Of a stretch of 64,000 nt of DNA, positions 50,831 to 52,043 are shown piece after piece. The stretch comes from Opitutales bacterium. GTDB taxonomy: Bacteria; Verrucomicrobiota; Verrucomicrobiia; Opitutales; Coraliomargaritaceae. How positions within the stretch are numbered: position 1 is the stretch's first letter; every line of letters starts with the position of its first letter. The stretch is taken from contig JABBCA010000082.1 of assembly GCA_018607135.1 (NCBI GenBank), positions 1 to 64,000 on the forward strand. The letters run 5' to 3'. A program made the translations under genes and the position numbers. The notes beneath the pieces are model-generated. The model saw only the letters and a list, made by a program, of their open reading frames with translations. It was not told where the DNA came from and ran no database searches.

Positions 50831-51335
50831 TAACGGCGGACAGGGCAGAGCATGTCGCTCCAACATGACACAAGACCATGGAGGGTCAGCCTCCCGGCCT
50901 GACCGCAGCGCACCTGAAGAATCGAATCGAAACTAAGCTAACGGCGGACATGGCAGAGCATGTCCCTCCAATATAACACGATACAATGGAGGGTCAGCCT
51001 CCGGCCTGACTGCAGTGCACCTGAAGAATCGAATCGAAACTAAGCTAACGGCGGACATGGCGGAGCATGTCCCTCCAATATGACACGATACAATGGAGGG
51101 TCAGCCTCCGGCCTGACCGCAGTGCACTCGAAGAGTCGAATCTAATCTGACGGCGGACATGGCGGAGCATGTCCCTCCAATATGACACTAAACCATGGAG
51201 GGTCAGCCTCCGGCCTGACCGCAGTGCACCTGAAGAGTCGAATCGAAACTAAGCTAACGGCGGACAGGGCAGAGCATGTCCCTCCAACATGACACGATAC
51301 AATGGAGGGTCAGCCTCCGGCCTGACCGCAGTGCC
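50831..51335. repeat. tandem array of five BIME-like units, spacing 108/107/102/107 bp
   Basis: units start near 50831, 50939, 51046, 51148, 51255; core CGGCGGACATGGCGGAGCATGTCCCTCCAATATGACACGATACAATGGAGGGTCAGCCTCCGGCCTGACCGCAGTGCA. Confidence 0.95.
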
Positions 51336-51346
51336 ATAGGTCAACA

Positions 51347-51823
51347 TTAAGCATCATGCCACCATAGTGGCTCAAGCTCTCCTTGATACGCCCACTCATT
51401 AGAACGATCCACCAAGCCTGCTCTCACTGGATTCTCCCGCACATATTGCCACTTAGCAGAATAACTTTCACCTCTGCGTAGTTGAGTATCCCACACATCC
51501 CGTTGCCAAAAACCACGAACTCCAGAATTTTTAACAATACGATTCTTCCAGAAGCCCACCCATTTCCTAAACGGATGAGTTGGATAACTACCAGGCGAAC
51601 AAAAGAAATGAATATGGTCGGACATGATTACATATCGCCCAACTTTCCAAAACTCAGCGGTCTTCCACGCATCGACAATGTGCTCATGCATTTCAGGTGT
51701 AGCTAAAAGCTTAGCCCGAGCTTTCGTGCAAACCGTAGCAAATACTATAACTGATTGATTACCCTTCTCATGAGAAACCCAATGCGCAGGTCGCTTACGT
51801 TTCGGAAGTGAATCCATTGCCAT
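51347..51823 (-). mobile_element. REP-associated tyrosine transposase (RAYT; Y1/IS200-like)
   Basis: YVIMSDHIHFFCSPG (His-X-His), FWQRDVWDTQLRRGESYSAKWQYVRENPVRAGLV; start placed at an internal Met because the ORF upstream runs through repeat units. Confidence 0.88.
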
Positions 51824-51871
51824 AAGATGTAGCTTAAAATGGATTCCATCAAGGTGAATCCCTAGCACCCT

Positions 51872-51950
51872 GTGGTCAGGGCAGAGCATGCCCCTCCAAT
51901 CAGACCACCGATCAAAGGAGGGGCAGCCTCCGGCCTGACCGCGGTGCCAT
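51872..51950. repeat. BIME-like unit 6, on the transposase 5' side
   Basis: GGTCAGGGCAGAGCATGCCCCTCCAATC...AAAGGAGGGGCAGCCTCCGGCCTGACCGCGGTGCC. Confidence 0.88.
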
Positions 51951-51967
51951 ACTAGCCCTCGCCACCA

Positions 51968-52043
51968 AACGGCGGACAGGGCGAAGCATGTCCCTCTAGG
52001 CAACTAAAAATGGAGGGGCAGCGACCGCTGCCTGATCACCGCC
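51968..52043. repeat. BIME-like unit 7 (divergent)
   Basis: AACGGCGGACAGGGCGAAGCATGTCCCTC...TGGAGGGGCAGCGACCGCTGCCTGATCACCGCC. Confidence 0.83.

What the first reader, a model, noticed from the sequence alone, without database searches (positions are those of the whole stretch)
50831..52043. RAYT transposase embedded in seven same-orientation BIME-like units
Five units lie 3' and two lie 5' of a Y1/RAYT gene. Each unit is an inverted pair of similar hairpins. The right half reads GGAGGGTCAGCCTCCGGCCTGACCGCAGTG. The left half, read on the minus strand, is GGAGGGACATGCTCCGCCATGTCCGCCG. Both follow GGAGGG-stem-CTCC-stem-CCGC with different stem sequences. This matches the established REP/BIME plus RAYT organisation of enterobacteria and pseudomonads, but with a distinct consensus in what looks like a verrucomicrobial genome.
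Basis: partly seen in the sequence, partly recalled or inferred. Interest (0 to 1): 0.8.

Follow-up and report, generated by a model that had tools for sequence, protein, structure and literature searches.

The report
REP transposase with GGAG-tagged hairpins
This is a known kind of selfish DNA, a tiny hairpin repeat plus the single-strand DNA enzyme thought to spread it, but in this bacterial lineage (Verrucomicrobiota) the hairpins carry the tag GGAG instead of the textbook GT[A/G]G, which offers a natural experiment on how the enzyme recognises its hairpins.

Summary
A 158-aa RAYT (minus strand, 51350-51823; H70-I-H72, Y127, N131) sits among 14 inverted REP half-units (50836-52037); the motif is absent from shuffled sequence. 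Its nearest structural match is E. coli TnpAREP bound to a REP hairpin (4er8). The repeat is dispersed in this genome (22 matches outside the locus) and in five family genomes with a close RAYT, and essentially absent from six without one.

Dispersed doublets are mostly feet-outside (20 of 25), the REPIN arrangement, so the locus is a REPIN array with the RAYT gene inside one REPIN (R5...L6).

The notable point is the foot. Described REPs have GT[AG]G. Here, and beside nearly every close RAYT relative across the phylum that could be called, the foot is GGAG (209 of 884 hairpins near the gene; 7 of 390 at 0.9-1.5 kb), with freely varying mid-stem and a conserved pyrimidine loop (CTCCGT type). 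More distant RAYTs of the phylum mostly have GTAG/GTGG. 

Residue 113 (E. coli H101) is associated with the switch but is not a strict code. New variant of a known kind; mobility and cleavage are inferred, not shown.

The parts
51350..51823 (-). RAYT / TnpAREP-like Y1 (HUH) protein, 158 aa: H70-I-H72, W106-Q107, D112-T113-Q114, R116, Y127, N131-P132 (stop codon follows at 51347-51349)
50836..50861 (-). REP half L1 (foot GGAG, first stem base pair mutated: GGAGCG)
50880..50969 (.). REPIN 1: REP R1 (50880-50906, +) and REP L2 (50944-50969, -), feet outside
50988..51076 (.). REPIN 2: REP R2 (50988-51013, +) and REP L3 (51051-51076, -), feet outside
51095..51178 (.). REPIN 3: REP R3 (51095-51120, +) and REP L4 (51153-51178, -), feet outside
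51197..51285 (.). REPIN 4: REP R4 (51197-51222, +) and REP L5 (51260-51285, -), feet outside
51304..51897 (.). REPIN 5 with the RAYT gene inside: REP R5 (51304-51329, +), RAYT gene, REP L6 (51872-51897, -)
   Evidence: nearest-REP orientation in other loci
51917..51997 (.). REPIN 6: REP R6 (51917-51942, +) and REP L7 (51972-51997, -; foot AGAG), feet outside
52012..52040 (+). REP half R7, degenerate (GGAGGGGCAGCGACCGCTGCCTGATCACC)

Best explanation
The locus is a REPtron: a RAYT gene lying inside a REPIN (two inverted REPs with their GGAG feet outside) next to tandemly amplified REPINs. The protein is a TnpAREP-like HUH/Y1 nuclease. By analogy with E. coli, Stenotrophomonas and Marinomonas TnpAREP it should bind the folded single-stranded REP hairpin (not its complement), use H70/H72, a metal and Y127 to cut single-stranded DNA near the hairpin through a 5'-phosphotyrosine link, and so spread REPINs. 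Inferred specificity: the foot GGAG, the first two G-C pairs and a pyrimidine apical loop (TCC/TYY, often with an unpaired pyrimidine on its 3' side) are the shared key of this RAYT lineage, while the middle of the stem is private to each RAYT. If the published guide rule holds, the unchanged 3' half of the foot (A3G4) should still select CT as cleavage site, G2 might allow CC, and CA (T2G4) should be lost. Shown here: anatomy, dispersal, co-occurrence of REP and RAYT, association of foot with RAYT lineage, fold. Inferred: binding, cleavage, mobility, cleavage-site choice.
For: Protein: only PDB sequence relative is E. coli TnpAREP; NCBIfam REP_Tyr_transpos E 7e-18; AlphaFold2 model pLDDT 84 finds 4er8 first, E 7e-9, then IS608/ISDra2 TnpA; HUH, Tyr and NP conserved. 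Dispersal: 35 model matches in the genome, 22 outside the locus; 7-59 in five family genomes with a close RAYT, 0 in G004/G005/G006/G008/G012 and 1 in G019 without one; 13 of 16 dispersed places tested lie outside long ORFs. Doublets 20/25 feet outside. Three RAYTs in one genome each with their own dispersed stem family. Foot: GGAG in 48 of 49 script-callable close-RAYT loci, GT[AG]G in 24 of 31 distant ones; the one close exception, L093, has GGAGGG repeats next to the gene on reading; 209/884 hairpins near versus 7/390 far; label clustered on the tree, 0 of 500 shuffles as low. Mid-stem about 0 bits, GG opening and loop T invariant in 24 distinct REPs.
Against: The protein scores below the NCBIfam cut-off (64.9 against 80 bits) and the Pfam Y1_Tnp cut-off. 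Copy number of the repeat is modest (tens, not hundreds). No movement, excision or empty site was shown; synteny with relatives was too poor. G041 has a close RAYT but no match to this model, because its REPs have other stems and TCCC loops. The dispersed REPINs of this genome differ in stem from the array copies, so their cognate RAYT is not proven. Deep branches of the tree are weakly supported.
Confidence: 0.85

Rival explanations
1. It is an autonomous IS200/IS605-like insertion sequence whose subterminal hairpins are the repeats; dispersed repeats are solo ends left by IS movement.
For: The gene is enclosed by hairpins with feet outside (R5...L6), as an IS would be; the fold is shared with IS608 TnpA.
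Against: Y-motif is YVRENP, not YxxxQ of IS200/IS605 (PMC6006769); the genome holds three RAYTs only 48-51% identical to each other rather than near-identical copies; REPs occur as REPINs without a gene.
Confidence: 0.06
2. The hairpins are host elements (transcription terminators, mRNA stabilisers or protein-binding sites) that only happen to surround the gene.
For: They are mostly intergenic and REPs of other bacteria do have such roles (introduction of PMC6006769).
Against: Private stem families accompany each RAYT, foot type follows RAYT lineage across the phylum, and genomes without a close RAYT lack the repeat.
Confidence: 0.06
3. The GGAG foot is an artefact of register: the true foot is GT[AG]G or another tetranucleotide a few bases away, and GGAG is part of the stem base.
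For: Some REP families have 1-2 nt between foot and stem; L238 can be read as GTGG plus AG.
Against: In the 50 GGAG loci tallied the two bases 5' of GGAG vary and the stem opens with GG in 49, so no GT[AG]G lies at a fixed offset; far-flank control is low.
Confidence: 0.03

Closest known systems
E. coli TnpAREP / RayT (subclass 2.2, group 2; PDB 4er8) with GTAG REPs and BIMEs
   Same: Fold, HUH + Tyr + NP active site, gene among inverted REPs, REPs dispersed and mostly intergenic, unpaired pyrimidine on the 3' side near the apical loop in many copies
   Different: 22% identity; no 10-aa insertion or G160/E161 tail; foot GGAG, not GTAG; hairpins shorter
Group 3 / subclass 2.5 RAYTs of Pseudomonas and Stenotrophomonas with short REPs and REPINs
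   Same: Short REPs, feet-outside REPIN doublets and tandem REPIN clusters (PMC3116915), protein of 150-160 aa
   Different: Foot GGAG instead of GT[AG]G; Y-motif YVRENP instead of YI[VI]ANP; tens rather than hundreds of copies
GTAG-17/19/20 repeats of Opitutus terrae (Verrucomicrobia, PMC3733652)
   Same: Same phylum, REP dimers, RAYT-linked superfamily
   Different: Foot GTAG, mostly GTGG for GTAG-20; corresponds to the GT[AG]G RAYTs found here in relatives, not to the GGAG lineage
IS608 / ISDra2 TnpA (IS200/IS605)
   Same: Single-strand hairpin with 5' tetranucleotide guide, loop T and unpaired base; related fold
   Different: YxxxQ motif, mobile multicopy IS, obligate dimer; none of these found here (dimer state not tested)

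Membership tests
RAYT / TnpAREP (class 2 Y1) | HUH motif and single catalytic Tyr with NP four residues on (Y---NP) | tested here: met
   H70-I-H72, Y127-V-R-E-N131-P132
RAYT / TnpAREP (class 2 Y1) | TnpAREP fold | tested here: met
   4er8 best PDB match, TM 0.64/0.62
RAYT / TnpAREP (class 2 Y1) | Curated NCBIfam score cut-off for REP_Tyr_transpos (80 bits) | tested here: not met
   64.9 bits, E 7e-18. A cut-off for naming, not a biological feature; homologues of 51-57% identity are named REP-associated tyrosine transposase in public records
RAYT / TnpAREP (class 2 Y1) | Gene flanked by inverted REPs that are also dispersed in the genome | tested here: met
RAYT / TnpAREP (class 2 Y1) | Low copy number, low identity between copies | tested here: met
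   three close RAYTs, 48-51% identity
RAYT / TnpAREP (class 2 Y1) | Strand-specific binding and cleavage of ssREP | not testable with these tools
   needs protein
Canonical (GTAG) REP | Hairpin of 20-40 nt in repeated copies | tested here: met
Canonical (GTAG) REP | 5' foot GT[AG]G | tested here: not met
   foot is GGAG here and across the RAYT lineage. So it works like a REP but is not a canonical GTAG REP
REPIN | Doublet of inverted REPs, feet outside, dispersed as a unit | tested here: met
   20 of 25 close pairs in four genomes
REPIN | Mobility as a unit (excision or insertion seen) | not tested
   no strain series at hand; empty site not found
BIME | Alternating REP orientations in tandem at regular spacing | tested here: met
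   period 102-108 nt in the window
IS200/IS605 TnpA (class 1) | Y motif Y---Q | tested here: not met
   Y---NP
TIRYT (subclass 2.1) | Long protein with C-terminal HTH domain, long TIRs, no REPs | tested here: not met
   158 aa, no HTH in the Pfam scan, REPs present

The most novel reading that the evidence does not exclude
The GGAG foot base-pairs with the CTYY of the apical loop, so that the loop offers the guide an internal mimic of the CT cleavage site; REPs of this lineage would be pseudoknotted hairpins with a self-occluded guide. In 24 distinct REPs loop T is invariant, loop C nearly so, and the next two bases vary only C/T, which keeps G-C or G-T pairs with the foot. Against it: GT[AG]G REPs of the same phylum do not carry the matching loop (2 of 27 loci), and some GGAG members have unrelated loops (GGT, TTTCA).
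Probability: 0.12. Interest if true: 0.7.

Novelty: new variant of a known kind. Interest (0 to 1): 0.5.

Why it matters
The GT[AG]G foot is treated as the mark of RAYT-linked REPs, and published searches require it (RNAMotif rule in PMC6006769; GTAG or CGTC in PMC3733652), so a whole lineage of REPtrons in Verrucomicrobiota would be missed. A lineage-wide foot change that keeps A3G4 but replaces T2, with GT[AG]G relatives in the same phylum and a small second GGAG cluster nested among them, gives a natural mutational series for two open questions: which residues read the foot, and whether the foot is the cleavage-site guide. E. coli TnpAREP tolerates no foot change (PMC8266576), so this lineage is useful material.

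Tried and rejected
1) Single-residue code at position 113 (E. coli H101): GT[AG]G RAYTs have His in 25 of 26, the main GGAG lineage Thr/Arg and never His. The prediction was written down before 60 further loci were fetched. His went with GT[AG]G in 34 of 37 script-callable loci; of the other three, on reading, L209 is a true GGAG, L238 ambiguous, L215 really GTAG. Arg went with GGAG in L230 and L234 but with GTAG in L243, L251 and L196. Rejected as a strict code, kept as an association. 2) Foot-loop pairing as a general rule: no covariation. 3) Empty-site proof of insertion: the genes flanking the locus are not adjacent in relatives. 4) Rfam: no family in the region. 5) Pair-covariation counts on REPs chosen by a hairpin finder were not run, since pairing is imposed by the choice. 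6) A genome-contig scan found only one relative, so the unnamed held genomes were used. 7) The paper on 4er8 is not held; its contacts were taken from PMC6006769 and PMC8266576.

Full report
Observation. The window holds an alternating array of left (minus) and right (plus) hairpin halves, L1 R1 L2 R2 L3 R3 L4 R4 L5 R5, then a transposase gene on the minus strand (51350-51823), then L6 R6 L7 R7. Right halves read GGAG-GGTCAG-CCTCCGGC-CTGACC-GC, left halves GGAG-GGACATG-CTCCGC-CATGTCC-GC. A degenerate pattern finds 12 copies in the window, all here, against none expected. Rfam has no family in the region.

The protein. It is a Y1/HUH protein: H70-I-H72, Y127, N131-P132, WQ...WD...R. By sequence the only PDB relative is E. 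coli TnpAREP; the NCBIfam REP_Tyr_transpos model matches at E 7e-18 but below its cut-off, Pfam Y1_Tnp weakly. The AlphaFold2 model (pLDDT 84; most of residues 1-22 low) finds 4er8 first and IS608/ISDra2 TnpA next. The motif set DHIH / WQ / YVRENP corresponds to none of the subclasses tabulated in PMC6006769; whether it is a subclass of its own was not tested. The family is common: 1344 homologues; the named ones among the best 120 are Verrucomicrobiota or Kiritimatiellota. Two more close RAYTs lie in the same genome (C89, 51%; C64, 48%).

The repeat is dispersed and goes with this RAYT type. A covariance model of 13 halves finds 35 matches at E<=0.1 in the genome, 13 in the locus and 22 elsewhere. 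In the same family, genomes with a close RAYT homologue show 7-59 matches (G001, G002, G010, G014, G032); G004, G005, G006, G008 and G012, without a close homologue, show 0 and G019 shows 1; G041, whose RAYT has TCCC-loop REPs, shows 0. G004 and G019 do hold distant RAYT homologues. A 69-nt REPIN from contig C102 finds further dispersed copies on about ten contigs. 13 of 16 dispersed places tested lie outside ORFs of at least 150 aa. The C89 and C64 RAYTs have their own dispersed stem families (6 matches each, none with the backward control pattern).

What the unit is. Among neighbouring matches within about 110 nt in four genomes, 20 of 25 have feet outside, 3 feet inside, 2 direct. This is the REPIN layout (PMC3116915). 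Read so, the window locus is four tandem REPINs, a REPIN whose spacer is the RAYT gene (R5 51304 ... L6 51897), and one more REPIN, with single halves at both ends. In other main-lineage loci the nearest REPs enclose the gene feet-outside in 16 of 40, so the gene inside a REPIN is frequent but not the rule.

The foot. Published RAYT-linked REPs carry GT[AG]G; the string GGAG was not found as a word in the papers searched for it (same calls). RAYT homologues were taken from about 850 genomes of the phylum, their flanks fetched and all hairpins tallied by the four bases 5' of the stem. Close homologues (over 110 bits): GGAG 48, GT[AG]G 1, uncalled 17. Distant ones: GT[AG]G 24, GGAG 7, uncalled 22. 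Twelve loci, among them the one exception (L093), were then read by eye: nearly all show GGAG(GG) repeats with imperfect stems beside the gene; in L133 one base separates foot and stem. These readings were used as labels for the tree. Of the 7 distant GGAG cases, L023 and L029 are broken close homologues, L115 is better read as GTAG plus one base, and L118, L126, L035, L038 stand. Control: GGAG is 209 of 884 hairpins within 500 nt of main-lineage genes but 7 of 390 at 0.9-1.5 kb; beside GT[AG]G RAYTs GTAG is 80 of 380 and GGAG 7. On the tree the largest GGAG set holds 57 GGAG, 7 unlabelled and no GT[AG]G row; L118, L126 and L133 form part of a cluster nested in GT[AG]G rows, which suggests a second change; deep support is weak and L107 falls outside both.

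What is conserved in the hairpin. In 24 distinct REPs of the 7-bp, 6-nt-loop type, GG opens the stem in all, the stem positions 7 and 10 carry about 0 bits, and the loop is mostly C-T-[CT]-[CT]-G-[TC] with T invariant (the foot and the pairing were imposed by the selection, the rest was not). The loop can also be drawn as a C-G pair closing TYY with an unpaired pyrimidine on the 3' side, as in the DNA fold of the right half. That resembles the recognised unpaired bases of the E. coli REP and of IS608 (PMC8266576). The enzyme therefore probably reads foot, stem base and apical loop, and the middle of the stem differs from one RAYT to another.

Specificity residue. Position 113 (E. coli H101) is associated with foot type, but a prediction recorded in advance and tested on 60 new loci shows exceptions in both directions. 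No single-residue code is claimed.

Mechanism and status. Binding, cleavage by Y127, choice of CT by A3G4 and mobility of REPINs are inferred from the named systems. Nothing here shows movement. As a system it is a known kind; the GGAG foot, shared by a wide RAYT lineage in this phylum, is the new variant. A report of it outside the held open-access library cannot be excluded.

Noticed in passing
G000:C3:34058-34173 (locus L156): A REPIN of the dispersed type and a REP of the C89 RAYT family lie about 90 nt apart, inside a predicted 738-aa ORF on the minus strand: a possible intragenic REP insertion, as reported for Opitutus terrae.
   Followed up: partly
G000: contigs C102, C80, C67, C85, C92, C3, C74: The dispersed REPINs (stems GGTCAA and GGACAG) differ from the array copies (stems GGTCAG and GGACATG). 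Either the array has drifted after its amplification or another RAYT is their cognate.
   Followed up: partly
G001:C25:25967-26437 (L059) and G002:C42:83591-84060 (L065): In both sister species the close RAYT is interrupted by a stop or frameshift, beside the same downstream gene, while its GGAG REPs are still there: an apparently decaying, vertically inherited REPtron.
   Followed up: no
L035 (G064:C41) and L038 (G063:C123): Very distant RAYT homologues with many GGAG-foot hairpins (stems CACGGACA/CACGGGTT, TTCC loops), outside the main GGAG lineage by score: possibly a further independent GGAG origin.
   Followed up: no
window 47995-50172 and 50179-50802: A secretin gene (PF00263) is followed by a 207-aa protein without Pfam match that has homologues in all seven family genomes tested (47-69% identity).
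   Followed up: no
window 52121-53872: Upstream of the RAYT, on the same strand, lies a protein with six S1 domains (ribosomal protein S1-like), followed by a terminator-like hairpin with a T run near 52060-52100.
   Followed up: no
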